From positions 57,204,237-57,268,236 of the forward strand of contig NC_088302.1 of the NCBI RefSeq assembly GCF_032854445.1: 64,000 nucleotides of DNA. Direction: 5' to 3'. The notes beneath the pieces are model-generated. The model was not told the DNA's origin and made no database searches. It was given only the letters and a program-made list of their open reading frames with translations. The position numbers and the translations under genes are program-made. Positions 1 through 35,000 of the stretch are shown in pieces; the stretch's first letter is position 1; the number at the start of each line of letters is the position of its first letter. Origin of the DNA: Liolophura sinensis (taxonomy: Eukaryota > Mollusca > Polyplacophora > Chitonida > Chitonidae).

Positions 1-1040
1 TTGTTATGGTGCTCTGGAAGCTTATTTCTTATCGTGCCCCTTTGTTATGGAGCTCTGTAAGTTTATTTCTTATCGTATCCCTTTGTTATGGTGCTCTGGA
101 AGCTTATTTCTTATTGTATCCCTTTGTTATGGTGCTCTGGAAGCTTATTTCTTATCGTGTCCCCTTGTTATGGTGTTCTGGAAGGTTATTTCTTATCGTA
201 TTCCCTTGTTATGGTGCTCTAGAAGCTTATTTCTTATCGTGTTCCTTTGTTATGGTGCTCTGTAAGTTTATTTCTTATCGTATCCCTTTGTTATGGTGTT
301 CTGGAAGCTTATTTCTTATCGTGTTCCTTTGTTATGGTGCTCTGTAAGTTTATTTCTTATTGTATCCCCTTGTTATGGAGCTCTGTAAGTTTATTTCTTA
401 TTGTATCCCTTTGTTATGGTGTTCTGGAAGCTTATTTCTTATCGTGTTCCTTTGTTATGGTGCTCTGTAAGTTTATTTCTTATTGTATCCCCTTGTTATG
501 GAGCTCTGTAAGTTTATTTCTTATTGTATCCCCTTGTTATGGTGTTCTGGAAGCTTATTTCTTATCGTGTTCCTTTGTTATGGTGCTCTGTAAGTTTATT
601 TCTTATTGTATCCCCTTGTTATGGAGCTCTGTAAGTTTATTTCTTATTGTATCCCCTTGTTATGGTGTTCTGGAAGCTTGTTTCTTATCGTGTCCCCTTA
701 CCACGGAGCTCTGTAAGTTTATTTCTTATCGTGTCCCTTTGTTATGGTGCTCTGGAAGCTTGTTTCTTGTCGTGTCCCCTTGTTATGATGCTCTGTAAGC
801 TTATCTCTCACGATATCAGGTACATATCGTGTTCTGTAAGCTTATCGATGCCCGGTCTAAACTAAATATTGTAAGCTTAGTTCTCACCCTGTCCTTTTGC
901 TCTATGATGCCCTGTAAGCTTACTTATTATAACAAGGGGACCCCGTAAGCTTACTTCTTATCGTATCCCCCTGTTATGGTGTTCTGTAAGATTATTTCTT
1001 ATTGTATCCCCTGGCTATGGTGCTCTGGAAGCTTATATTT
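1..1040. repeat. 41-bp satellite in intron 14 of SLC5 copy A
   Basis: About 20 near-identical units of TTGTTATGGTGCTCTGGAAG followed by a TTATTTCTTATCGTG segment; starts at 1, 42 and 83 give a period of 41. It decays past 800. The frames open in it are repeat artefacts. Confidence 0.93.
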
Positions 1041-7100: not shown

Positions 7101-10100
7101 TTAAACCCCATCCCCATGCTGCGGATTGCCTTCCCAAACACTAATGACCAAAAAGTGTGCCGGGTCAGCGGATTGGGATCAAAACTGAAAACAGACGTCG
7201 GAATCAGGAGAATCAAATATGTCCAAGTAATTTATTTGTTTCTTTCAATGTTGCACTCTAGGCGTCTTCTGGCAAAGATTATTCATACCATGTTAAAGTT
7301 GTTTCCTGTAAGTCACTCGACATCACACCGAAGTTTCATTTTGAAGGAAAAAAGCACAAACGAAGTACAGAAATCATTGACGGCAACAAACACTATCTAA
7401 TTTCGTGGAAAGTATGAAAAACAAGACAAGTATCTTGTGCAAAAAGAGAAAGTTTTGTACTCGAAAAACTTCACCCTTCCGCCATTGACATTAAGCAGCC
7501 ACATTTCGTGAAACCCTCCCACGCAAATTGAACCCTGGAACAGAACAATGAACAACATTCACCAAACTGGGTACTGACAACTCGAACGTCTCCTTCCCTA
7601 ACACAGCTCAAGGTATGAAGCCGGTCTTAACCTTGTTAATCTTGCGACAAACAATGCATCACGTAATTAATCTAAAGAAAACGATCTGTCAAATTTAACA
7701 GAACGTCTGTTATCTGGGTGATGCTAGAATGTATTCTGCTATTGCAGCAGATAATGCTATAACACACACATTCCATCTATTCAACACAACGATTCTATTA
7801 GATAAACATGATATTATGTTGAATATGACACAGTATTATGGTATAAGAAGAGAATACATTCTAGCATCACTTACTTTCTGGTCAAATAAACAGAATCTTT
7901 TTGAGTGTACGTTTAAGGACTATTACCAAAAGCTAAGAAAACCTTTAGATAACACCTGTAATCAGAATGTTTAACATATGTAATTTCTTGAAGGTTGGAA
8001 GCAACTTTCGAAAGAGACTTTTCTCCCTTTGAGGAAAGAGCGCAGAAACAAAATACAGAATGCCAATTTGTTGATTACCGTTTTTATGATTATAATTTTT
8101 TTAAAGACGTACAGCATAGAGAGTAAAAGCAGAGCGGCGATTACGGTGCGATAGACGTACAGCATAGAAAGTAAAAGCAGAGCAGCGACGACAGTGTGAT
8201 ACATGTAGATGACAAATTGTCAAACGTGACCAGTAAAATACGGCCTCTTGTCAATTTACCTCATTCAGGGTTTCATTCTAACTGTTCCTGTAAAGACATA
8301 GCGCATCGCGCAGAGAGCTCCAAACGCCCTTATTTTGCTGTTTATCCCTCCTTGGTGCACTGGACCTCTCGAGATGGCTCAGCTGGTAGAGCGCCCGCTT
8401 AAACCCAGGGGCAATCCTGGGTCGAGGAAGTTGTAGCTTCCTTGCTCTTAAGGGGATAGTGCAACGACTGCTTGACCCATATCAGTATAATGGCTTGGGC
8501 GGGGCGGCTTACTTGCCTTCAGTAAGTCGTCTCAGTAAAGCAGCACTAGATAAAAGAGCGGTGGAAATCCGTTCTGCTACAAGGGGCCACATTACACGTA
8601 CAAGAACTCATATGATACTTAAATATGTACATACTCAAATTGTTAAGGGCGACGTTAAACGTTGAGCACTCACTCACTAACTCTCTCACTCACTTCTCCA
8701 AGCACTAACACCACAGGAGCCTTAGAGTGTCCGCGAATAGTTTCATGTCTTATGTTAATTTTGTTCACAAGAGGATTATTGTGTAATGAATGCGCTGTCA
8801 ATCATCGGTATATTTCCCACCTATTGGACCTTCACGATGGTAATGGTAATACATCATCACAGTCTGTAAACAAATAATAGTTATCCTGTGTTAAATCATA
8901 TCATTATTTTATGTGCCACAAGTTGATGTTTTTCCTACTGTGGCTGCTGTTCATACCACTCTATGCCATCACTGCATTCTAATCATTCATCCCTCACTAA
9001 TGTTAAATAGTTTAATTAATGATCACTCATACCTCGATGTGTTTCGCGTTGTAATACATGAAGTTTTTAGGTACTGGAGGCAACAGTTTTGTGCCATGTT
9101 ACACGGAGATGTTTTATATGCATTTTTCCTACAGACACTGAACTTGTGGTTAGGTGTGCTGATTTTCCTGTGGTTACCTAGAGTATTTAAGCCTAGTCCT
9201 GAGAGATGTTAAGCTGCATAGCTTTGTTTTCTGTCCCATCGGGATTCCGTATTCGGTCATATAGATTATTGTCGTATTCCACCAGACATACGTTTCTATT
9301 CGGTAATTGTTTTGGTGAAACACTCAGTTATTTGTTTATGCCACCCATTCATGTCATTCTGAGTAAATGTAAATAATGAGACTGGGAATGCGTTCTAACG
9401 ACATACCTTTTTATATATTGCACGATATTTTATGCAAACAGCTGGTGCGAAATAATGTCGAGAATAAAGAATTTTAATTACATTTCAGCCCAAGCTCATA
9501 TCTAGGTAAGTAACCTAACAAACTGATTGTGGCCCTAATTATGTTTCACTTTTATTGTCCAGTTCATGAGTGAGATTCTGTTCTAAATGGGAGAAAAGAG
9601 TAAAAGTATTCTGACGTGTACCCCTTCGCCGTGAGTCAGTGAACACCTGACCTGTAGAAGTGAATCTAAAAACCTGTGATTTTCCGTGTAAGAAGTTTCA
9701 GTATTAGGTTCTACATCGTGACTTCCATTCCATACGTTTGTCCTATAAACAGACTGAATTCGTGCACATGTGTTTCTGTAAATGTGCTCGCACGAAACAA
9801 AAATTACCCAAAAAAAGGTACCCAAAACTATAAGAATATATGTATTTCGAGTGTGGCATCTTGATTTTTGTTTTCGTATTTTGGTTATGTACTACTTGTA
9901 TAAAATTTGTCAATGAGCGATGTGTGATTGTCTTCAGTTCCTCCCCAATTCATGACGCTTACCATGACAGTCAGCATATCACCCAACATGACACCACAGT
10001 TCATTACGCTTACCATGATCACGACAATCAGCATACCACCTAACATTACAGCACAGTTCATGAAGCTTACCATGATCACGACAGTCAGCATACAGCCCAA

Positions 10101-13100
10101 CATGACCCCACAGTCCATGACGCTTACCATGATGACGACAATCAGCATACAACCCAACATGTCACCATAGTCCATGACGCTTACCATGATCACGACAGTC
10201 AATATACCACCTAACATTACAGCGCAGTTCATAACTCTTACCATGATCACGACAGTCAGCATACCACCCAACATGTCAACACAGTCCATGACGTTTACCA
10301 TGATCACGACAGTCAATATACCATCTAACATTACAGCGCAGTTCATGACGCTTACCATGATCACGACAGTCAGCATACCACCCAACATGTCAACACAGTC
10401 CATGACGTTTACCATGATCACGACAGTCAGTATACCACCTAACATTACAGCACAGTTCATAACGCTTACCATGACAGTCAGTATACCACCTAACATTACA
10501 GCACAGTTCATGACGTTTACCATGATCATGACAGTCAACATACCACCCAACATTACAGCACAGTCCATGACGCTTACCATGATCACGACAGTCAGTATAC
10601 CACCTAACATTACAGCACAGTTCATAACGCTTACCATGATCACGACGGTCAGCATACCACCCAACATGATGACACTTTGAATAACGTCTGTCCAAATCAC
10701 GGCTTTGATCCCACCCTATAACAAAATTTGGAACGCCACACCATTTTTAGCATACAAAATCCCCTAATTCCTGCAGTAATCCGACAGATGGATGTTTTGG
10801 GCTCTCACACAATTACATTGCGATGGACGTGACTTAACATTAGTGTTGACTACATTTGTGCGGAGGGCAAACTCCGAATAACAAGGGCATATTTCAAACG
10901 TAATGTTACGTGTACTGTTCTTAGGCAGCATAAATAGAGAAAAATACATGTGGAATCGAAAATATTCAGTACATTTTGATGACTTACTAGAGATGTGTAG
11001 AACACAGAGGCTGCCGAAACAAGGACAATAGAGTAGCCGACAGGAAACCCCGAGACTGGACAGAGAAAGGGAGCATCATAATAGTACAACAACGATATTT
11101 TATGAGAATGCCACACGAAACACTAAGGCTGAACCGAATATGTGACCAGGAGAGAAAACATTGAAACTGGAGCGAACAACTGAGGAAACATTTTTTAAAG
11201 TTATCATAGGGAAGGCCGTCTTGGTAACAGAAAACACTGAAAATGGATAGCAAAAATAGGAAACATTTCAAAAGTTACAAGAACGAAGACACTGTATGAG
11301 ACAGGAAACACATACTAAAAATTATAATAAGGAAGACAATGTAAGCTATAGAAAATACTAATACTACCTGCTGCCATAGCTGTGGCCGGCCGAAAAGAAC
11401 GATCCCCATATAGAACGTCTGGAGCAAGACAGATCAAAAGTCAAAACGCTTTGATGTATAATAAAGTCACCGAACAAAATGTACCCGACTCTGCGTCATA
11501 AACAGCCAGTCGCTACTCATATTAATACGGATCCCCAAAATAAAACGATGCCTTTATCCTTGAATACTACAGACCATGTTTTTCCCAAAGAAGCTCGGGG
11601 ATTATTATGCGAAAGATGCTGATTTCTGTCAATGTAGTTAGCTTGAAAGAACAATTTCCATATAAGTTCTGTAATTATTAACCATATGAGCAGACCTGCA
11701 ATGCATCAGTGGGAGAATTAATGAAAATGCTGATATCGCGTAAAGCTACTGGGTAGAGTATCTGGTGTCTTAAATAACTCCGTGGTGTGGACGATACACG
11801 CTGCATTAGGTCAAGTCAGGATTACGTGGTGAGGACTAAGGTCAGATAATACACGGCGGATTAGGTCAAACCAGTATAACGTGCTGAGCATGTGTCATTC
11901 GTAAGGACTTAGGCCAAATAATACACGGTGGATTAGGCCAAGCATGTGTCATTCGTAAGGACTAAGGCCAAATAATACACGGTGGATTAGGTCAAACCAG
12001 GATAACGTGGTGGGCATGTGTCATTCGTAAGGACTTAGGCCAGATAATACACGGTGGATTAGGCCAAGCATGTGTCATTCGTAAGGACTAAGGCCAAATA
12101 ATACACGGTGGATTAGGTCAAACCAGGATAATGTGGTGAGCATGTGTCATTCGTAAGGACTTAGGCCAAATAATACACGGTGGATTAGGCCAAGCATGTG
12201 TCATTCGTAAGGACTAAGGCCAAATAATACACGGTGGATTAGGCCAAGCATTGTGTCATTCGTAAGGACATAGGGCACATAATACACGGTGGATTAGGTC
12301 AAGCCAGGATTACGTGGTGAACATATCTGTCATTCGTAAGGACTAAGGCCAGATAATACACGATGGGTTAGGTCAAACCGGGATAACATGGTAAACATTA
12401 ACCTTGCCAAGCACTGATTTGGTAAAACTCACAAACAGCTAGTACTGAAATGACTTTGACAAGTTTACTTTCACTGACCTGATAGAGAATCCCTAAGGCG
12501 GAGGCCACAAGCCTTATGACCCGGGAGCCGTAACGTAATTCTAGATACTGGAAAGATTGGAAACATGTAATATTAAAACCTACATAAACTTTTTATACTA
12601 GTCGGTACAAATAAACTGAGTTAAATACATATCACCCTTATTTTATATGGCCTTCAGCCATTGTTTATAGACTTAATTTTCATTTCAGCATTGTGAATCA
12701 TTGTAGACATTTGATGTTCCCAGTGCAGCCGAAACGCAGCCAGCGCTTTAACCACCTGAGTCAACAGTGTTTGAATATTTCCAGCTGATTTTTGTACAAG
12801 AAATAGTTGGTGGAGGAGGTGAAAATGTAGAAAATAAGGCAATGTGTGCGCAGTAATTGTTTGTTTCATCTCAGCAGGTAGTATGAGAACACCTTAACCG
12901 GATAACTCATTTTGTAGTGTTGCTTTCTCCAAAAACGGCTTTGGGCGTTTATTTCAGCAACTTGCGAGAGGTTGAGGAAGTTCATGTTTTAATTCACCGC
13001 TATTCGATACACTGTCCGCCGTGATAATGTGAAATATTCTTGGGTACGGCCTTAAACACCAATCAAATAAATAAATACATGTAAATATTCGATACATTTT

Positions 13101-15742
13101 ATGGTTGATGTTGTGTATATCAAACTGATCACTTGTATGTTAAATGAATTGATTTACTGTGATACCTGAGTTAATAACAATCAAATAAACAATCTCTGTA
13201 GCAGGACGCCGAGTGACTGGCAGATTCCTATCGTAGTAAACGGCAGACGGTAATAGATGCACTCCATCACGCAATCCGCCTGATAGTTTGGGAATAACAA
13301 CTAATTTTAACTTTCAAAGTTTATCTGAACTTTCATTTATACGATGGCGGTTTTTTTAATGAGTGGAGGAAATCGAAGTGCTCGGCAAAATGTATGTGCA
13401 CCATGCTGGTGGAAGATTTATTTATTTATTTATTTGATTGGTGTTTTGCGCCGAACTCAAAAATATTTCACTTGACGGCGGACATCATTATGGTGGGTGG
13501 AAACGGCCAGCATTATGGTGGGTAGAAACCGATGGACATCGGCAGGTTGCTGCAAGACCTTCCCACGAATGGCCGGAGAGGAATCCAGCATGAGCTGGAC
13601 TTGAACTCACAGTGACCGCATTGGTGAGAGACTTATGGGTCATCACACTGCGCTAGCGCGCTAACCAACTGAGCCACGGAGACCCCGCTGGTGGAAGACA
13701 TTCGGATCTTCAATGATCATTTGACTGAGCTGAGCAAAATCTCATACAAGCGTCGTCTATCACGGGTTGTATGGCGGGGGGGGGGGGGGGGGGGATCTAA
13801 AAACCTCTGTCCAAGGCTGGGATTAGACTATGAGGTTGTCTGTGGGGGATCTATATATCCCCGTCCAAGACTGGAATTAGGCTATGAGGTTGTCTGTGGG
13901 GATGGGGGGGGGGGGGTCTAAAAATCTCTGTCCAAGGCTGGGATTAGACCATGAGGTTGTCTGTGGGAGATCTAAAAATCCCTGTCCAAGGCTGAGATTA
14001 GACTATGAGGTTGTCTGTGGGGGATCTATATATCCCCGTCCAAGCTATGAGGTTGTCTGTGGGAGATCTAAAAATCCCTGTCCAAGGCTGGGATTAGACT
14101 GTGCGGTTGTCTGTGGGGGATCTATATATCCCCGTCCAAGACTGGAATTAGGCTATGAGGTTGTCTGTGGGGGGGGGGGGGGTCTAAAATCTCTGTCCAA
14201 GGCTGGGATTAGACCATGAGGTTGTCTGTGGGAGATCTAAAAATCCCTGTCCAAGGCTGAGATTAGACTATGAGGTTGTCTGTGGGGGATCTATATATCC
14301 CGTCCAAGGCTGGAATTAAGCTATGAGGTTGTCTGTTGGGGAGGGGGGGGGGGTCTAAAAATCCCTGTCCAAGGCTGGGATTAGACTGTGAGGTTGTCTG
14401 TGGGGGATCTATATATCCCCGTCCAAGGCTGAATTAGGCTATGAGGTTGTCTGTGGGGGGGGGGGGGTCTAAAAATCCCTGTCCAAGGCTGGGATTAGAC
14501 TATGAGGTTGTCTGTGGGAGATCTAAAAATCCCTGTCCAAGGCTGGGATTAGACTGTGCGGTTGTCTGTGGGGGATCTATATATCCCCGTCCAAGGCTGG
14601 AATTAGGCTATGAGGTTGTGTGTGGGGGAGGGTCTAAAAATCCCTATCCAAGGCTGGGATTAGACTATGAGGTTGTGTGTGTGTGGGGGGGGGGGGGGGA
14701 GGGTCTAAAAATCCCTGTCAAAGGCTGGGATTAGACTATGAGGTTGTCTGTGGGAGATCTAAAAATCCCCGTCCAAGGCTGGGATTAGGCTATGAGGTTG
14801 TCTGTTGGGGGTCTAAAATCCCTGTCCAAGGCTGGGATTAGACTATGAGGGTCTAAAAATCCCTGTCTGTGGGAGATCTAAAAATCCCCGTCCAGGGTTC
14901 GGATTAGGCTATGAGGTTGTCTGTGGGGGATCTATATATCCCCGTCAAGGCTGAATTAGGCTATGAGGTTGTCTGTGGAGGGTCTAAAAATCCCGTCTAA
15001 GGCTGGGATTAGACTCTGAGGTTGTCTGTGGGAGATCTAAAAATCCCTGTCCAGGGTTCGGATTAGGCTATGAGGTTGTCTGTGGGGATCTATATATCCC
15101 CGTCCAAGGCTGGAATTAGGCTATGAGGTTGTCTGTTGGGGGTCTAAATATCCCTGTCCAAGGCTGGGATTAGGCTATGAGGTTGTCTGTGGGGGGTCTA
15201 AAACTCCCTGTCCAAGGCTGGGATTAGACTATGAGGTTGTTTGTGGGGGATCTATATATCCCCGTCCAAGGCTGGAATTAGGCTATGACAAACGCCACTA
15301 AGCCATGACCCACTTCTAGTGAACACGATGAGATGAAAGTATACCTATGTAGCATCTTACCTGATACCCGCTGGTGATTCCTAAAGGATGTATGAGGGGA
15401 ACGACGACTTGAGCTATGCACAAGAATGTAAGTGGTAGACCTACGTGAATCATCCAGAACTGAGTCCCGTGTGCGTAAATCTCTGCGGGAAAACCCAGCA
15501 TTAAGATTGACGACTCATAGGACACTATAAGAGACAGCGCCACTGGAATCACGTGTAGATTTCGGTTGCCCACCACGTGTAGATTTCGGTTGCCCACCAA
15601 AAATTCAGCCGTCGTTTTTTTGACGCCCACCGGAGATGGCGAAGTAAATTCCTACGCCGGATGAAAGAGCCACCGTAAGCCCGAAAATGGTGTAGTCGAT
15701 GGAGGTGAATGAGGCTCTCTCGCGGAAGATAGGGCCTGCCAT
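1074..15742 (-). CDS. SLC5-family symporter, copy A (exons 1-14; two frameshifts in exons 1 and 3)
   Basis: Exons: 15742-15361, 12547-12479, 11418-11368, 11055-10988, 10715-10635, 7534-7461, 7184-7047, 6625-6490, 5848-5760, 3179-3067, 2322-2252, 2096-2010, 1618-1425, 1174-1074. Exon 15 should lie beyond the left edge. It is a tandem duplicate of copy B with identical phases and lengths, except exon 1 (+25) and exon 3 (-1). The +25 is a 24-bp in-frame duplication plus one extra A in an A7 run, which brings a TGA at codon 46. Exon 3 lacks one C in a CC/CCC run. Both 1-bp changes are in homopolymers, so they may be assembly errors; all splice sites and other exons are intact. If real, the gene is a pseudogene. 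Function would be as in copy B: a sodium-coupled solute symporter of the plasma membrane. Confidence 0.82.
1425..1618 (-). CDS. SLC5 copy A exon 13
   Basis: 194 bp. GALAGSLFSFGVCMWLSLGS (helix), then an extracellular-type loop with the sequon NGT and another at NTS, ending STDM. The long loop sits where SLC5A8 has its glycosylated segment. Acceptor gcgtcacag. Confidence 0.85.
2010..2096 (-). CDS. SLC5 copy A exon 12
   Basis: 87 bp, phase 0. VSFSLLGSITGPLLGLFIAS then PYTNTV|gtaagt. G-x-x-x-G-P-L-x-G-L-F is typical of SLC5. Confidence 0.87.
2252..2322 (-). CDS. SLC5 copy A exon 11
   Basis: 71 bp. VVVFGLVSVGVAFLIK then TIGGPLQQ|gtatta; one transmembrane helix. Confidence 0.84.
3067..3179 (-). 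CDS. SLC5 copy A exon 10 (sodium-site helix)
   Basis: 113 bp, phases 2 to 1. STLSSALSSISVLVWTDF, then SETKATIIAKLV. The S-T-L-S-S segment corresponds to the TM8 serines that line the Na+ site in SLC5 proteins. The acceptor cttacag is copied many times at 3485-3805. Confidence 0.88.
3193..3476 (-). mobile_element. tRNA-derived SINE, family 2, inserted beside exon 10 of copy A
   Basis: Minus strand: its 3' end (TTAACTCTCACTCAC) abuts the exon 10 acceptor region. The body carries GAAGTTGTAGCTTCCTGGC, TAAGTCGTCTCAGTGAAGC and a CATATGACTGAAAAATTG motif. It separates exon 10 from the array at 3485. Confidence 0.85.
3485..3805. repeat. About 36-bp array copied from the exon 10 acceptor of SLC5 copy A
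   Basis: Units contain the plus-strand text GAGCCGAGGACAATGTGCTG then TAAGACAAAGTGAGA. On the minus strand this is a pyrimidine tract plus TTACAG|CACA-TGTCCTCGGC, the border of exon 10 (3179). Variants still read TCACAG or TTCCAG. Confidence 0.85.
3893..4055. repeat. CA-rich microsatellite
   Basis: Imperfect CA/CACACG/CATACA run of about 160 bp in intron 9 of copy A. Confidence 0.9.
4205..5640. repeat. 24-bp array with a diverged second block, intron 9 copy A
   Basis: Units TACACTACTTTCTGGTGTAG plus GCG/GGG dominate to about 5160. From 5160 a related block alternates GTAGGCGTACATTGCTTTTT with TGGTTACAGGCGTAGAC-type units. Confidence 0.9.
5760..5848 (-). CDS. SLC5 copy A exon 9
   Basis: 89 bp. 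VLPYVVTDLFQNLPGLSGLF then LASLFSASL; donor AAG|gtacag. Confidence 0.88.
6490..6625 (-). CDS. SLC5 copy A exon 8
   Basis: 136 bp. VVWSMFPGFVVFGTLACLEG, then YTGCDPYGAKIISNANQ|gtacac. Confidence 0.9.
6708..6860. repeat. Short array in intron 7 of copy A
   Basis: Three to four units around CCCGTATAGTCAAATACACA and TATAG, starting about 80 bp upstream of the exon 8 acceptor. Confidence 0.75.
7047..7184 (-). CDS. SLC5 copy A exon 7
   Basis: 138 bp. DPNPLTRHTFWSLVFGK, then GFNQSTIQRVVSVKTQKQAK, donor AAAAT|gtaagc. Confidence 0.9.
7461..7534 (-). CDS. SLC5 copy A exon 6
   Basis: 74 bp. GSICVGGFHEMWLLNVNGGR then VKFF, donor GA|gtacaa; joins exon 7 as FDFDPNP. Confidence 0.86.
8100..8300. other. 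Intron 5 segment shared by both SLC5 copies (copy A side)
   Basis: TACAGCATAGAGAGTAAAAG to GTAAAATACGGCCTCTTGTC AATTTACCTCA matches 33588-33715 of copy B (TACAGCATAGAGAGCAAAAC, GAAATACGGCCACTTGCCTA). It is residual intronic homology from the gene duplication. Confidence 0.75.
8368..8694 (+). mobile_element. SINE family 2, intron 5 of SLC5 copy A
   Basis: Head GATGGCTCAGCTGGTAGAGC (A-box-like), AGGAAGTTGTAGCTTCCTTG, AGTAAGTCGTCTCAGTAAAG, ending GACGTTAAACGTTGAGCACT and CACT repeats. Confidence 0.87.
8700..9945. other. Intron 5 of SLC5 copy A, unique sequence
   Basis: No exon, repeat or RNA gene was recognised; short frames here show no family features. Confidence 0.6.
9950..10677. repeat. 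57-bp array copied from the exon 5 donor of SLC5 copy A
   Basis: Thirteen units; eleven of about 57 bp (19 codons) and two shortened by 6 bp. In minus-strand sense each unit carries the coding text for MLGG(I/M)LTVVIM followed by GTAAGC or GTAAAC and 18 more intronic bases. The exon 5 frame stays open through the whole array to 9885. Confidence 0.93.
10635..10715 (-). CDS. SLC5 copy A exon 5
   Basis: 81 bp to the first donor. GGIKAVIWTDVIQSVIMLGG then MLTVVIM|gtaagc. The last 33 bp and the donor are reiterated in the adjoining array, so up to 12 further equivalent donors follow in frame. Confidence 0.9.
10988..11055 (-). CDS. SLC5 copy A exon 4
   Basis: 68 bp. VSGFPVGYSIVLVSAASVFY then TSL|gtaagt; acceptor tctgtccag. 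Confidence 0.87.
11368..11418 (-). CDS. SLC5 copy A exon 3 (1-bp deletion)
   Basis: 51 bp against 52 in copy B. TFYMGIVLFG is in frame, then GGCCGGCC replaces GGCCCGGCC. Restoring one C would read PATAMAA into exon 4. Confidence 0.83.
11790..12400. repeat. Array in intron 2 of SLC5 copy A
   Basis: Composite units of AATACACGGTGGATTAGGYC plus GTGTCATTCGTAAGGACTAA; two alternating subtypes give a higher-order period. Confidence 0.88.
12479..12547 (-). CDS. SLC5 copy A exon 2
   Basis: 69 bp. YLELRYGSRVIRLV to GILYQ|gtcagt; 23 codons as in copy B. Confidence 0.87.
13016..13080 (+). mobile_element. SINE family 1, 3' fragment
   Basis: CCGCCGTGATAATGTGAAAT to AACACCAATCAAATAAATAA only. Confidence 0.75.
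13417..13686 (-). mobile_element. tRNA-derived SINE, family 1, full length
   Basis: Minus-strand element: tRNA-like head (GGCTCAGTTGGTTAGCGCGC), B-box-like GAGTTCAAGTCCAGCTC, body with CCGGCCATTCGTGGGAAGG and an ATAAATAAATAAATAAAT tail. Flanked by the 12-bp target duplication GCTGGTGGAAGA at 13405 and 13687. Confidence 0.9.
13770..15290. repeat. G-rich array in intron 1 of SLC5 copy A
   Basis: About 28 units of GATTAGACTATGAGGTTGTC, TGTGGGGG, TCTAAAAATCCCTGTCCAAGG. Some units carry runs of up to about 18 G (13778-13794), prone to slippage and possibly quadruplex-forming. Confidence 0.92.
15361..15742 (-). CDS. SLC5 copy A exon 1 (frameshifted, with 24-bp duplication)
   Basis: Starts MAGPIFRERASFTSIDY. 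After GGRQK an extra A breaks the frame (copy B has AGAAAA where A has AAAAAAA). The frame resumes as TTAEFLVGNRNLHV, with GNRNLHVV written twice by the 24-bp tandem copy at about 15546-15596. Ends HPLGITSGYQ|gtaaga. Confidence 0.85.
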
Positions 15743-23547: not shown

Positions 23548-24164
23548 ACCTTTTTTTATTTATGCATGAATATGACTACCTGTAGAATATGTTGAACAAT
23601 TTTCAGCTTTGTTAATCCCTTTTCTTTACATTCACCAAACGTCATATACATGTACCTCTCCTGCGGCACATCATCCTTATATAAACGGAGCAATGAAAGA
23701 AATACATCTCAATTTTCTGAATTTAAAATAGACGACTGACTCCCTGGACAGCACGTCTGCTTTGGATTTGTATATGTACGAATCGGCCATTTATGAATGG
23801 CAATATCCGAGAGATGCCTCTACCTGGCGTACAGGGAGCCTACATATACTGTCTGGCCTAATTTGCTAGATGATGTACTAACATCGACGAGCCTATGTCC
23901 TGAAACATTGCTGCTGAAAAAGTCAATGCTTTACTTTCAAGCGCTTCCATTCAAAGTTTCTAAAACTTTGCCAAACATATCAGCAACTTAATTACTACTT
24001 GTAATTATAGGGTCAGTGTTATCGTGCAGTTTTAATATTACCCCTTTGTTTATATGAACAGTTGCAATGAAAGCTTAACTGAGATACTTTTATAGTTTTT
24101 CTTGCATTATAGCAGTATATTTCTGTAATACTAATATGGACCTCTCAATGTTTACACATATGGT

Positions 24165-24790
24165 GTTGTGGACCAAGTACTGGACCTGACGCACCGGATG
24201 TTAGACGGGTATTTCTCTCCCACATCACCGGATGTTAGACACGTATTTCTTTTCCACATCACTGGATGTAAGACACGTATTTCTCTTCCACATCACGGGA
24301 TGTCAGACACGTATTTCTCTCCCCCATCTCTCCCATATCAAGGATGTTAGACACGTACTTCTCTTTCACATCACCTGATGTTAGACATCTATTTCTCTCC
24401 CACATCACTGGACTGCTAGACACGTATTTCTCTCCCACATCAAGGGATGTTAGACACGTATTTCTCTATTACATCACCGGATGTTAGATAGGTATTTCTC
24501 TCCCACATCACTGGATGTTAAACACGTGTTTCTCTCCCACATCACTGGATGTTGGACATCTATTTCTCTCCAACATCAAGGGATGTTAGACAGGTATTTC
24601 TCTCCCACATCACCGGATGTTAGACACGTATTTCTCTCCCACATCACTGGATGTTGGACATCTATTTCTCTCCCACATCACGGGATGTTAGACAGGTATT
24701 TCCCTCTCACATCACCAGATGTTAGACACACATTTCTCTCCCACATCACGGGATGTTAGACACATATTTCTTTCTCACATCACCGGAAAC
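24165..24790. repeat. 34-bp satellite
   Basis: About 17 units of GATGTTAGACACGTATTTCT plus CTCCCACATCACCG. Confidence 0.92.
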
Positions 24791-25064
24791 TGCTAAACAC
24801 GTGTATGTAATTCTACTTCTAGGTAAGTATCTTTTGTTAAAAATATTGTGATGCTAACTTAATTGATGTAATAGGTCTTTGAAAATTGACTTTGCATATC
24901 CTACTACCAGTTCACGGCCTCAAATGGGATTTGGATCCTCCGCTTAAGATCTTGTCATTTTACAAGGCAGATAATAAATACTTTTGACAATGAAATAGTA
25001 CAACATTATTCGTTGACGGACATTTTACTGAATACGGTTTTATGACTAAACATTCCAACAGCTA

Positions 25065-25450
25065 TAAACAGAGAGTACATATTCAGGTACAAAAACAAAG
25101 TAAATATTCAGGTACAAATCAGAGTATATATTCAGGTATAAAACAAAGTACATATTCAGGAACAAAACAAAGTAAATATGCAGGTACAAAACAGAGTACA
25201 TATTTAGGAACAAAATAGAGTACATATTCAGGTACAAATCAGAGTACATATTCAGGTATAAAACAGAGTACATATTCAGGAACAAAACAGAGTACATATT
25301 AAGGTACAAAACAGAGTACATATTCAAGAACAAAACAGGGTACATATTCAGGAACAAAACAGAGTACATATTCCGGTACAAAACAGAGTACATATTCAGG
25401 AACAAAACAGAGTACTTATTCAGGTACAAAACAGAGTATATATTCAGGCA
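25065..25450. repeat. 24-25-bp A-rich satellite
   Basis: About 16 units of AAACAGAGTACATATTCAGG plus AACAA; lies about 500 bp downstream of the copy B stop. Confidence 0.92.
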
Positions 25451-25947
25451 TAAAACAGTCATGATAGTTATCTCCCTTATCCAAGCAGTCATCTCTCTAA
25501 TTTGGCTATACCACCAGGGAATATTGCTAAAAAGTGGTCAGCTACAAACAGCTCTGATATGAAAGTGGGCATTCAATAAAAGAAATGGTAGACTAATGAA
25601 CACAACTCTACAATACATCTTGAATAATGATGAAAAGCCTGTAGCGTGCTGTGTTAGGAAATTGTGTCCTTTAAGCGCATAGGCTCGTCCTCCGGTTCTT
25701 TTTCGTGGAGAGATGACCTTGACCATGTGGTAAAGAGTGAAAGAGAAATTAGGCATATATAAGGTTAACTACAGCCGTGTTCACATGGTGAGATTTGACG
25801 ATCAACTCGTCGAATATTGCTTATCAAATCTCTTTACTTGGCAAAGGTTAGACAGGTAAGAGGGGGTTTGTGACACAAAATATATAACAGATACGATGAA
25901 TTCAACTAAAAAGGAATAAATACTTCGGTACATACAAAAATATAACA

Positions 25948-26069
25948 TTACCTGGAATGACCTTTGAATCTAAGTTGTCTTCTCCATGACTTTGGCATCC
26001 AACAGCAGAGATTGTCCCACAAAGGTGCTATATACCGAGGGTCGACTTGCACAGCCGTTTTACAACCAC
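25948..26069 (-). CDS. SLC5 copy B exon 15: cytosolic C-tail
   Basis: Acceptor ttttttatag in phase 1. Joined to exon 14 it reads STGGCKTAVQVDPRY, closely matching the STGG...DPRY of SLC5A8. It continues IAPLWDNLCCWMPKSWRRQL and ends GHSR, TAA. The stop is embedded in CAG|gtaatg, so splicing at 25952 to an unseen exon 16 is an alternative. Confidence 0.75.
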
Positions 26070-29000
26070 CTATAAAAAAACATTGGCACGACAAATCGAA
26101 GGTCAAGCAGTTTAGGTGTTTACCAAGCACTTATAATCGTCAGTGGTACTATATACCGAGGGTCGACCAGCCACCTAAAACAGTCAGTGGTACTACATAC
26201 CGAGGGTCGCTATAGTGATTTGTAAGATTCTCTCATTGTGTCGCTATGGTGATCTGTCATCGTGTCACGTTGTCATGCTGATCTATAAGCTCGTCTATCA
26301 TCGTGTCACGTTGTCATGGTGATCTGTAAGCTTATTTATCGTCGTGTCACGTTGTCATGCTGATCTATAAGCTTGTCTATCATTGTGTCAGGTTGTTATG
26401 GTGATCTGTGAGATCATCTATCATCGTGTCAGGTTGTCATGGTGATCTGTGAGATTATCTATCATCGTGTCAGGTTGTCATGGTGATCTGTGAGATTATC
26501 TATCATCGTGTCAGGCTGTTATGGTGATCTGTGAGATTATCTATCATCGTGTTACGTTGTTATGGTGATTTGTGTGCTTATTTATCATCGTGTTTCGTTG
26601 TTGGGATCTGTAAACTGATAAATCAGCGTGTCACGCTGTTATGGTGATCTGTAAGCTTATCTATCATCATGTCATGTTGTTGTTATCTGAGAGTGTATCT
26701 ATCATCATATCAGGTTGTTGTGATGATCTGTGAGCTTATCTGTCATCGCGTCAGGTTGTTATGGTCATCTATGAGCTCATCTATCATCCTGTCACATTGT
26801 GGTGACTGTGAGCTTATTTACCATCGTGTCACGTTTTTATGGTCATCAATCAGCTTATCTATCATCGCCTCACGTTAGTATGGTGATCTGTGAGCTTATC
26901 TGTCATCATGTCATGTTGTTATGGTCATCTTTGAGCTTATCTATCATCGTGTTACGCTGTTGTGGTGATCGGTGAGCTTATAAATCATCGTGTCACGCTG
27001 TTATGGCGATCTGTGAGCTTATGTCTCATCGTGCTACGTTGTTATTGTGATCTGTGAGCTTATGTCTCATCGTGCTACGTTTTTTATTGTGATCTGTGAG
27101 CTTATGTCTAATCGTGCTACGTTGCTATTGTGATCTGTAAGCTTGTCTATCATCGTGTTACGTTGTTGTGGTGATCGGTGAGCTTATAAATCAGCGTGTC
27201 ACGCTGTTATGGCGATCTGTGAGCTTATGTCTCATCGTGCTACGTTGTTATTGTGATCTGTGAGCTTATGTCTCATCGTGCTACGTTGTTATTGTGATCT
27301 GTAAGCTTGTCTATCATCGTGTTACGTTGTGGTGGCGATGTGTGAGCTTATCTGTTAAGGTGATCTGTGAGATTATATCTCACCAAGCCACAGTGGTAAT
27401 CGGTAAGGCTTTGTCTCATCACTAATGATCTGTAGCTAATTTGTTATCTCTGATCTTGTCATATTGTCATGATTATCTGTAAGCTAAGGTCATTGTGTAC
27501 GATCGCTTCTGTGACGATATGTAAGATTATATATCATCACGTCAAGTAAGCGTAAACCTACTTATCTCTGATTAAGGTAACAAACTATACGTCTTTAAAA
27601 CTTACCCGTACTTATACTGACCAGCAAGGCGACTAGCACACAGGCAAATAAACCGATCGCTCCAAAGTAGAGATAGGAAATGGAATAGAAACCTGTTAAC
27701 ACTGATCTGAAAATTGAGCATGCACNNNNNNNNNNNNNNNNNNNNNNNNNNNNNNNNNNNNNNNNNNNNNNNNNNNNNNNNNNNNNNNNNNNNNNNNNNN
27801 NNNNNNNNNNNNNNNNNNNNNNNNNNNNNNNNNNNNNNNNNNNNNNNNNNNNNNNNNNNNNNNNNNNNNNNNNNNNNNNNNNNNNNNNNNNNNNNNNNNN
27901 NNNNNNNNNNNNNNNNNNNNNNNNNATGCCATCCCGAAACGATTAGTGTTTAAATAGACCTATAGTACTTACGACAGTGGTCAGGCTTATGAGACAACCC
28001 AGACTGAGCATAAAACACCACTCTGGTCAACTTTCTCAAGAAAAATATCAATATTTACACTCCAAAAATTAATCTGTTCTTTTAACAGAATATTTATTTA
28101 TTTATTTGATTGGTGTTTTACGCCGTACTCAAGAATATTTCACTTATACGACGCCTGCCAGCATAACTATAAAGACTATTCTTGTTCCTGAAGTTTAATA
28201 TCTTTAGCTGTATACATTTAGTGTTTGACTACATCTTATCAGATACACATACATATATGGTGGAAGGAAACCGGACAGAGCCTGGGGAAACCCACGACCA
28301 TCCGTAGATTGCTGAAAGACCTTCCCACGTACGGCCGAAAGGGGTGCAAACATGAGCTGGACTTGATCTTTTAACAGAAAGCCTGAGTAATGTCAGAATG
28401 TATTCCGTTATCATAACATAATACTGTCTTGTATTCAACATAATATTTTGTTAATCAAACAGAGCCGTTATCTTAAATTAACGGAATATGTGTGTTCTAG
28501 TTCACAGAATGAACTGCTGCAATAACAGAATACATTCTAGCACCACTCAGACAACAGGTTTTCTCTTATTTAACAGAATAATCTGCTACAGATTAATTTT
28601 TGAGTTTATTAACTACTGCCTCGAATTTATGGTTTAGAGTACAAGACAACAATACAACGTCTTTACCTTAAAGAGGCGCTAAACAGAGAGGCTAAAAATA
28701 GCCCAGATAGCCCAGGTAAGGTCTGGAAGAGGTCGGTTACTACATACGGCAGTACCTGAAACAGAGAACAAATACCAGTACATCCTGTATGACCTTCATG
28801 TGACCTTCCATGTCAGCCGCAGAGTAGTTTTAAGGCTAACAATAGTGAGGTAACTCCGTTCACCTTCAGTTCACGTATACTGGCACACAGACAAGAGTTC
28901 AATTCACCTATAATGGCACACAGACAACAGTTCAGTTCACGTTTGCTGGCACACACAGAACAGTTCAGTTTACGTTTACTAGCACACAGACAAGAGTTCA

Positions 29001-32000: not shown

Positions 32001-35000
32001 GCGCAGAATACTGTCACACTGACTGGTTCTCTGCCTTTGACGTCAGATGGCGCTAATCGCTTCATGGTGCGCAGAATACTGTCACACTGACTGGTTCTCT
32101 GCCTTTGATGTCACATGGCGCTAATAGCTTCAAGGTACGCAGAATACTGTCACATTGTTTAATTTGTACCGATAACTATAACACAGCATTTGCCGTTTAT
32201 TTTATTTGATAAGCGGTGAGGAATTTTCTAAATATGTTTAGAACATCTGGAAAAGTATTCAGTGAATTAATTCAGATTTAGAGGCTAGTTTATGTTCACT
32301 TTAAGCTAAAGCAAGCAAAAATAACAAGTTTCTTGCCACCGAGCTCTGGTAAATACCATTAAACCACCGCCCTTTGGCAGCTTCCTGACAAACTCACTGA
32401 TAAAGCCAGCTTGTGACAATCATACACACTGAATAATGCTGTACTTTAAAACTCTACTCCACTGGAACGCTATTTCTAGTTAGCAGAATAGTATCTAAAA
32501 AAAATTTTTGTTTATCACGGCACACACGAGAGCTTTAAGAAGCGACTCAGCTCAGCTGGCTGTACAGAGGTCTCAGGCCCCGAGGGACATAGGCCTGTGA
32601 CTTAAGATTGAACTGCATACTGTAAATTCGAAATGACCGCCAAACCACCAACTGCATCGTGGGTACAACCAGCGTCGGTTACAGTTCAGTCGTGCGTACA
32701 CGAGCCCTTAGTACCCAATGTAACCCTTGGGTAGAGCTGAGAAGGATCTTAAGCTCCCGCGTAGGCCGAGACATAAATTTTTATACTCCAAAAACTTCAC
32801 TCTGCCCCCGTCGCTATTCAGTTGCCACATCTTGTCAAATCCTCCAACGTATATTGATCCCTGAAAAAATGAAAATTCTTCGTTATTTTACATAGACGTC
32901 AATTAATATTTTTGTGTTACGTATTGATTGAAATACAACATCTTTAGTGAGCGCTTAACGTTTTTTTCAGCAATATTTTTCAGCAATATTTTTCAGCAAT
33001 ATGACGTTGAAGGAATCCTTAGAGCGCATGTAATTTGCCTACTTGTTGCAGGTCGGATTTCCACTGCTCCTTTATCTAGTGCTGCTCCACTGAACGACTT
33101 ACCGAAGGCAAGTAAGGCGCCCTGCCTGAGCCATTAAACTGATATGGGTCAATCAGTCATTTCAATTCCCCTCAACGCTGAACACCAAGCAGGGAAGTTA
33201 CAATTTCCTCTTTGAAAGTCTTAAGTGTGACCCGACTCAGGATTGACCATGGATCTACCGCTCCCAATAACATGCTTAGTGATTATATATACTTTCGGCT
33301 AAATATGAATTTTATCAACATGCGAATTCGTAGAGATTGATTATTGTTTTATGCAAGTCTGACAGTCTGTTTTACCCTAATTAACCAGTTCTATCCGTAA
33401 ATTCACTGACTTCACAAATCGTGCCGACCTACAGCAAACATCTTGATCTTGAACTTTTGTAAACTTTAACGATTAATCCTTCGTGTCTTGCAAGCTTGCG
33501 AGTTTACATGTTGTGTACTACGTGTATAAGTTGTGTACTACGAGTATAAGTTGTGTACAACATAACTTATAACTGGTGAAATCCGGCTACAGCATAGAGA
33601 GCAAAACCAGACTACCGACGACAGTGTGGTGGTGGCAAACAGTCACGCGTTACCGGTGAAATACGGCCACTTGCCTATTTATCTGAGTTAGGGTTTTACT
33701 CTAACTATGTAAACGCTTAAATAATAGCAAATTACACTCCTCCCAGCTCCACAACGGCTTTTGCAGAAAATTTGCATTGGTACTAATACCAATTAATTAC
33801 ACGTCACTGGTCTAGAACTACTAAAACCTGACAGACCAACCCCGATAGCTCAGTTGGTAGAGCATCCGTTTCCACAGGGTCTATCCTGGGTCAGGTCACT
33901 CCTAAGGTCTTAAAAGAGGAAGTTGTAGCTTCCTCGCTTGGTGTTCAGCATTACGGGTATAACAACTGGTTGACCCGTGTCAGTATAATGACTCGGGTGC
34001 GGCCACTTCCTTGCCCTCGGTAAGTCAACTTAGTGAAGTAGCGCCAGACAAACGAGCGGTAGAAATCCGTCCTGCAACAAAGAGGCAAAAAAGAGGCGTT
34101 AAACCCTAAACACTCACTTACTCAAACCTGAGATAGGGCGATGATTTCCGTATGGTTTATTACTCTCACCATTATAATAACAGCTAGAATTCCGCCCAAC
34201 ATAATGATAAACTGGATGGCGTCCGTCCAGATAACAGCCTTTATCCCGCCCTGGAAGGGGACCAAAACCATATAGATATAGATCAAGGAAAATCATCTAC
34301 TTCGCCTCAAACATTTGCAAGAAGCATCATAGAACACATGCATGTAGTAAGCTCGGCAAAGACAGGAAAAATTGCTCACGCTCTAAAATTGTTTATGGGT
34401 ACATATTACGACAAGAGTAAGCATATGGCTGTTTACGTGTCTATACTACGACAAGAGTAACCATATGGCTGTTTACGTGTCTATACTACGACAAGAGTAA
34501 CCATATGGCTGTTTACGTGTCTATACTACGACAAGAGTAACCATATGGCTGTTTACGTGTCTATACTACGACAAATGTCACCATATGATTGCTTACGATA
34601 CATAAAGTCATGAAAAGAGAAAACAGTGAGCACACGAGTTGGACAATGTAAATTTAAGTGTCACAAAAACCTTTTAGCCCACAAAAAGTCTTAATGAATA
34701 GGACTTGGTCACTTACTAGAGAGGTGTAAAACACAGATGCCGCGGATATAAGAACAATCGAGTAGCCGACGGGAAAGCCTGAAACTGGAGAGCGAAAAAG
34801 GAGAAATGAAGGAATGAGAGAAAAGAACACTGAGAAAAAAGTGGGTCAACTGACAATTTATACTATCGAGCTATTTTAACTCAGAAAACCAAAGAAGAGG
34901 CTACAGCAGACTCTGAGGCTGAACAGCATAGGGGCGAGAGATGAAGGAATAAGGGGAAAGATGAGGTGACAAGAGATACTGAGGCTGAACAGCAAAGAGA

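What the first reader, a model, noticed from the sequence alone, without database searches (positions are those of the whole stretch)
9885..10715. Minisatellite built from an exon end plus its 5' splice site, kept in frame
Exon 5 of SLC5 copy A ends MLGGMLTVVIM|gtaagc. The adjoining array repeats this text 13 times as 57-bp (19-codon) units, each with a GTAAGC/GTAAAC donor after the same codons. The two shorter units lose 6 bp, so the frame is preserved, and the exon 5 frame stays open to 9885. Any of the 13 donors could be used, each step adding 19 (or 17) residues including an extra hydrophobic MLGG-LTVVIM segment inside a transporter helix. Copy B has the same exon border with no array, so the expansion arose in copy A after or independently of the duplication. 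This could be a splice-site ladder, a length-variable protein segment, or neutral slippage.
Basis: partly seen in the sequence, partly recalled or inferred. Interest (0 to 1): 0.85.

Follow-up and report, generated by a model that had tools for sequence, protein, structure and literature searches.

The report
Minisatellites that copy splice donor sites
In a chiton transporter gene the end of an exon and its splice signal are repeated 13 times in a row; this is probably spliced out harmlessly as intron, but in a sample of other genes of the same animal similar arrays sit on the start of introns and hardly ever on the end of introns.

Summary
The array is real: on the - strand, 13 near-identical exon-5/intron-5 junctions (9 GTAAGC, 3 GTAAAC, 1 GTAAGA) lie 57 bp apart (two steps of 51), and the exon frame is open to 9885. 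"Kept in frame" is not supported: only 3 of 171 single changes of the unit make a stop, so an open frame is expected (about 0.69), and copy A has two frameshifts as assembled. The array is not unique in this genome, the chiton Liolophura sinensis. Among 127 sampled donors, 8 (7 loci, one a tyrosine kinase) have the donor copied downstream; of 118 acceptors tested in mirror image, none. The sample is SSF-heavy: 6 of 50 SSF donors, 2 of 77 others. Arrays fill 14.2% of up to 400 bp after donors, 3.5% before acceptors. In the five other TRF-confirmed donor arrays, using a later donor would bring in a stop. Best reading: recurrent tandem duplication across 5' splice sites, tolerated because the first donor is used. 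No RNA was examined; a splicing ladder is not excluded.

The parts
10635..10715 (-). Exon 5 of SLC5/SSF copy A (GGIKAVIWTDVIQSVIMLGGMLTVVIM), with the original 5' splice site directly after 10635
   Evidence: tblastn; Pfam SSF 138-164, 22.6 bits; sequence
9963..10667 (-). Array: the last 33 bp of exon 5, then 12 further exon-end + donor units (10 of 57 bp, 2 of 51 bp)
   Evidence: TRF (9966-10667); donor parsing; exon share
9885..10715 (-). Open frame running on from exon 5 through the array (276 aa)
   Evidence: open by chance
15361..15742 (-). Exon 1 of copy A; one extra base in a run of A near 15620 shifts the frame; in-frame 24-bp tandem duplication at 15550-15599
11368..11418 (-). Exon 3 of copy A (3' end placed by eye at gcagcag|gtagta); one base fewer than copy B and two paralogues, second frameshift
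7460..7534 (-). Exon 6 of copy A, next exon after the array intron
34170..34250 (-). Exon 5 of copy B, same border, no array

Best explanation
A minisatellite grew by repeated tandem duplication across the exon 5/intron 5 junction of SLC5 copy A. Such a duplication leaves the upstream exon and its first donor unchanged, so as long as the first donor (10635) is used the extra copies stay inside the intron and are removed. The same kind of event has happened repeatedly at 5' splice sites in this chiton genome and, in the sample examined, hardly at all at 3' splice sites, where extra copies would lie upstream of the true exon start. Shown: the array, its donors, the other donor-copy arrays, and the donor/acceptor asymmetry in the sample. 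Inferred: use of the first donor, neutrality, and the reason for the asymmetry.
For: Donor-centred 26-mers have a copy (>=21 of 26 bases, ungapped) within 400 bp downstream at 8 of 127 donors; acceptor copies upstream 0 of 118; donor copies upstream 0 of 108; acceptor copies downstream 0 of 145. Fisher 8/127 v 0/118 P=0.007; without copy A, 7/126, P=0.015. At >=19 of 26: 12 of 127 donors, 0 of 127 shuffled donors, 1 of 118 acceptors. TRF arrays span 6 of 127 donors and 1 of 145 acceptors (P=0.053). Periods 57, 82, 68, 67, 57 and 50 bp with different units suggest separate origins; 2 of 6 are multiples of 3, and 5 of 6 have in-frame stops before the array end. In copy A 3 of 171 single changes make a stop, P(no stop)=0.69. 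Nine-column windows as well kept as the donor: 11 of 57, 40 of 82, 54 of 68, 42 of 67, 2 of 57, 30 of 50, so donors stand out only in L111.
Against: No RNA data were read, so first-donor use is inferred. 10 of 13 copy-A donors pair with U1 equally well (-8.0 kcal/mol; the other 3 at -5.3), so nothing in the donor itself marks the first. In L111 all 8 parsed donors are unchanged. GT is intact at 46 of the 48 donors that one search prints. Synonymous variants in the copy-A array (8 of 21) are somewhat above the 22% expected. The sample is not random: 50 of 127 donors are SSF genes with 6 of the 8 cases; other families gave 2 of 77 (P=0.057). Split by sample the side bias is weaker: 19 v 8 exons in the survey (P=0.052), 8 v 3 among the exon-5 loci (P=0.23). 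Whether the other array-bearing genes are otherwise intact was not tested.
Confidence: 0.78

Rival explanations
1. Splice-site ladder: several of the 13 donors are used and give isoforms longer by 17-19 residues per step.
For: All 13 donors keep GT and 10 of 13 pair equally well with U1; exon 6 continues in the same phase and the array frame has no stop. Work on competing donors does not always favour the first (recalled, no call).
Against: Open frame expected by chance; copy A frameshifted in exons 1 and 3 as assembled; the other five TRF donor arrays have in-frame stops; added residues would follow a segment that matches SSF positions 138-164.
Confidence: 0.1
2. Donor-specific mutational hotspot: array birth is triggered at or near 5' splice sites (for example by transcription- or splicing-linked DNA structures), rather than arrays arising anywhere and being weeded out at acceptors.
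For: 15 of 34 nearest array starts within 400 bp of a donor fall between -58 and +56; arrays are about 3-fold denser 100-300 bp after donors (13.7%, 16.1%) than 100-300 bp before acceptors (4.5%, 6.0%), beyond the usual acceptor signals.
Against: Array coverage rises smoothly away from the donor, 5.8% at 0-20 bp to 17.1% at 300-400 bp, and so do copy counts (8, 9, 11 of 127 and 12 of 125 at 0, +40, +80, +120): no peak at the donor itself. At acceptors 5 of 17 nearest array ends also lie within 60 bp.
Confidence: 0.25
3. Plain coincidence: in a genome this rich in tandem arrays any border is caught now and then; donors are not special.
For: 43% of the window is tandem array; donor-border coverage (4.7-5.8%) is below the level further into the intron.
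Against: Acceptors are nearly free of arrays and copies; intron starts and ends differ (27 v 11 exons, P=0.014).
Confidence: 0.15
4. Assembly artefact (mis-stacked repeat).
For: HiFi coverage was only 14x (PMC11068029, passages).
Against: Units differ from their consensus by about 8%, and the array (0.7 kb) is shorter than the mean HiFi read of 8,347 bp.
Confidence: 0.03

Closest known systems
Minisatellites / VNTRs in introns
   Same: Head-to-tail units of 10-100 bp, several to many copies, units slightly diverged
   Different: The unit straddles the exon/intron junction, so each copy holds an intact-looking 5' splice site; recurrent at donors of several genes in the sample
Tandem (competing) 5' splice sites and alternative donors
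   Same: Several donors after one exon, as in the tandem-donor literature (search listing and abstract starts only: PMC2423196, PMC2279118)
   Different: Those are close-set sites (subtle changes of 3, 6 or 9 nucleotides in PMC2279118); here up to 13 near-identical donors 50-82 bp apart made by repeat expansion; use not shown
Intron gain by tandem duplication
   Same: Tandem duplication involving splice-site sequence (passages seen: PMC2891723; listing only: PMC4974935)
   Different: Here the intron is already present in copy B and near paralogues; the duplication enlarges it and creates no new intron

Membership tests
Minisatellite | Head-to-tail array of 10-100 bp units | tested here: met
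   57 bp x 12.4
Minisatellite | Copy number varies between individuals | not testable with these tools
   One assembly only
SLC5 / SSF transporter gene (host of the array) | Matches SSF profile | tested here: met
   Nine copy B exons joined: 7.2e-33, over cut-off. Single copy A exons are weak: exon 5 22.6 bits and part of exon 1 18.2 bits, both under the 22.8 cut-off; exon 7 of A and of B no family. The genome-wide profile search did not list the window's exons
Functional SLC5 gene (copy A) | Intact coding frame | tested here: not met
   Frameshifts in exons 1 and 3 relative to copy B; two further paralogues agree with B in exon 3, one in exon 1. But dN/dS A v B is 0.076 over 6 exons, so decay is recent or these are assembly errors
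Alternative 5' splice sites | More than one donor used in RNA | not testable with these tools
   No RNA data on hand
Intron gain by tandem duplication | New intron absent from relatives | tested here: not met
   GT follows the same exon end in 8 of 8 loci printed (copies A and B and 6 paralogues). Some more distant paralogues, such as L010 and L015, read on in frame there without an intron
Translated length-variable segment | Array frame under coding constraint | tested here: inconclusive
   Ten 57-bp units: 8 synonymous of 21 variants v 22% expected; variable columns by codon position 5, 6, 9

The most novel reading that the evidence does not exclude
This chiton genome has a continuing process that turns 5' splice sites, but not 3' splice sites, into minisatellites, so that a few per cent of introns (thousands of genes if the sample holds) begin with ladders of near-identical donors; the spliceosome normally takes the first, and some ladders, such as copy A with its open frame, give length isoforms.
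Probability: 0.25. Interest if true: 0.82.

Novelty: new variant of a known kind. Interest (0 to 1): 0.6.

Why it matters
How the spliceosome chooses among equal 5' splice sites has mostly been studied with built reporters (recalled). Here natural arrays offer 5 to 13 near-identical donors in a row, and in five of six TRF-confirmed arrays only the first can give the normal protein. RNA reads already deposited for this animal (PMC11068029) could say which are used. The donor/acceptor asymmetry would also show how selection or mutation shapes intron growth.

Tried and rejected
Frame preservation as selection: rejected (that test used the ten 57-bp later units and left out the two 51-bp ones). 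Stronger conservation of donors than of the rest of the unit: seen only in L111 of 6 arrays. A peak of array coverage exactly at donors: not seen. One shared ancestral array for the SLC5 paralogues: rejected, periods and units differ. Other donors of copies A and B: of 16 donors tested (exon 3 of each copy left out), only exon 5 of copy A has donor copies. Literature: 9 answered full-text searches (two of them with no paper) listed no paper on minisatellites made of exon end plus donor; listings only, apart from passages of PMC2891723, PMC7931591, PMC3152781 and PMC12005716. The library lacks most subscription journals and could not take the term with the sign 5', so this is weak evidence of absence.

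Rows left out of counts: of 155 loci, 28 had no confidently inferred donor and 10 no confident acceptor (borders were inferred by a script from splice-site scores, not from RNA). In the copy test 27 of the 145 acceptors had under 300 bp upstream. The 80 survey loci were chosen by hand in list order (match up to 330 bases, at least 1.5 kb apart); 40 more came (18 ABC, 2 sugar transporter, 20 ASC). A short array in L060 (18 bp x 2.1) overlaps an exon match end but does not span an inferred donor and is not counted. A donor-spanning array in L160, in a gene fetched because it already had one, is not counted; nor is the donor-adjacent array in L164, from the same later fetch of whole SSF genes.

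Full report
What was checked. On the - strand exon 5 of an SLC5-like gene ends GTGATCATG|gtaagc at 10635, and the sequence then repeats exon end plus intron start: 13 junctions in all, counting the exon's own, with 10 steps of 57 bp and 2 of 51 bp. TRF reports 9966-10667, period 57, 12.4 copies. The exon frame stays open to 9885. Copy B has the same border without an array. A DNA search of the genome with the exon 5 end listed 13 matches, all in this array; that tool skips common words, so this does not prove the sequence unique.

Where it is. The window's own genome has 609,464,459 bases in 632 contigs. Size and number of scaffolds, a contig of 37,343,639 bases equal to the stated N50, and contigs of 25,057,479 and 19,479,325 bases agree with the chiton assembly published as Liolophura japonica (passages of PMC11068029), since corrected to Liolophura sinensis (whole text of PMC12441733). 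43% of the window is tandem array of period 10 or more, in 44 merged arrays.

Is the frame kept? The unit has no stop in the exon frame, and only 3 of its 171 possible single changes would make one. With 21 distinct variants among the ten 57-bp later units, the chance of seeing no stop is about 0.69. A length of 57 is a multiple of three, which one length in three is, and both 51-bp units lack the same six bases, so one event suffices. Variants are 8 synonymous and 13 not, against 22% expected synonymous: a slight excess, not convincing.

Is copy A a working gene? As assembled, exon 1 has one extra base in a run of A and exon 3 one base fewer than copy B; two other paralogues agree with copy B in exon 3, and one of them in exon 1. 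Against decay, A and B differ by dN 0.089 and dS 1.16 over six exons, ratio 0.076, so copy A was probably constrained for most of its history. Either it broke recently or these are consensus errors of a 14x HiFi assembly.

Is the array unique? No. The exon 5 peptide finds 35 homologous exons in the genome, copies A and B included. Three of 35 have an array that runs from the exon end over the donor: copy A (57 bp), L003 (82 bp x 6.4) and L031 (68 bp x 5.7). A survey of 120 more exons (20 each of SNF, P450, tyrosine kinase, other SSF, ABC or sugar transporter, ASC) added L079, a tyrosine-kinase exon, and L111 and L115, two exons at one SSF locus. In total TRF arrays span 6 of 127 inferred donors and 1 of 145 inferred acceptors, L144 (P=0.053).

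A direct test needs no repeat finder. The 26 bases centred on the donor recur (at least 21 of 26 identical) within 400 bp downstream at 8 of 127 donors: the six above, L054 (SNF) and L113 (SSF). The mirror test at acceptors gives 0 of 118; donor copies upstream 0 of 108; acceptor copies downstream 0 of 145. Fisher P is 0.007, or 0.015 without copy A. At 19 of 26 the figures are 12 of 127 donors, 0 of 127 shuffled donors and 1 of 118 acceptors; at 18 of 26, 15, 2 and 1. Arrays also fill 14.2% of up to 400 bp after donors and 3.5% of up to 400 bp before acceptors, in 120 exons with both borders (27 against 11 exons, sign test P=0.014). Split up, the survey gives 19 against 8 (P=0.052) and the exon-5 loci 8 against 3 (P=0.23). 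Caution: 50 of the 127 donors are SSF and hold 6 of the 8 cases; the other families have 2 of 77 (P=0.057); L111 and L115 count as one locus, so 8 donors are 7 loci; some sampled exons are close paralogues.

What the other arrays say about use. Of the six TRF arrays only copy A reaches the array end without an in-frame stop; the others have 4, 9, 8, 16 and 8 (one of the last 8, in L115, lies before the exon), and four of the six periods are not multiples of three. In each of the five a stop comes within the first copied unit, so only the first donor can give the normal protein. Donor 9-mers stand out as well kept only in L111. The simplest account is that the first donor is used and the copies ride along in the intron. 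This is inference: no RNA was read, and the integrity of those genes beyond the exons seen was not tested.

Why donors and not acceptors? Duplicating a donor leaves the upstream exon and its first donor as they were; duplicating an acceptor puts a second acceptor upstream of the true exon. That selection filter would explain the asymmetry at the borders. It does not obviously explain why arrays are also about three times rarer 100-300 bp before acceptors than after donors, so a mutational bias toward intron starts is kept as a rival.

Novelty. Minisatellites and competing donors are both known. A recurrent class of minisatellites built on 5' splice sites was not found in nine answered searches, which cover open papers only. 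I file it as a new variant of a known kind.

Noticed in passing
window 1-64000: 43% of the window is tandem array in 44 merged arrays, while the genome paper's repeat table gives 0.08% for 'other (simple repeat, microsatellite, RNA)' and 14.04% unclassified, and a word search found 'tandem' 0 times in its main text.
   Followed up: partly
window 1-808 and 26252-27353: The arrays after copy A and after copy B align with each other (both have a 41-bp period, roughly 66-73% alike), so some arrays are old or spread as a family.
   Followed up: no
window 24000-28660: With a recalled SLC5A8 probe, copy B shows no match for the 3' part of the gene that copy A has between about 3181 and 1559; copy B may be truncated, or may use copy A's 3' exons.
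   Followed up: partly
window 15550-15599: In-frame 24-bp tandem duplication inside coding exon 1 of copy A, VGNRNLHV twice.
   Followed up: no
L160 6605-7853: The gene of L031 carries a second donor-spanning array, 129 bp x 9.7, with in-frame stops.
   Followed up: partly
L107 from base 599 (oriented): A degenerate 16-bp repeat that is little more than the donor itself (AGCAG|GTAAGC...) follows an SSF exon; it counts as a donor copy at 20 of 26.
   Followed up: no
L144: The only acceptor-spanning array found, 115 bp x 4.2 in an ASC channel exon; also the one acceptor copy at 19 of 26.
   Followed up: partly
L003 1581-2060 and L031: In these two arrays units also hold acceptor-like CTTGCAG, CTTCCAG or CTTACAG where the exon has its own CAG, so a unit could look like a small exon.
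   Followed up: no
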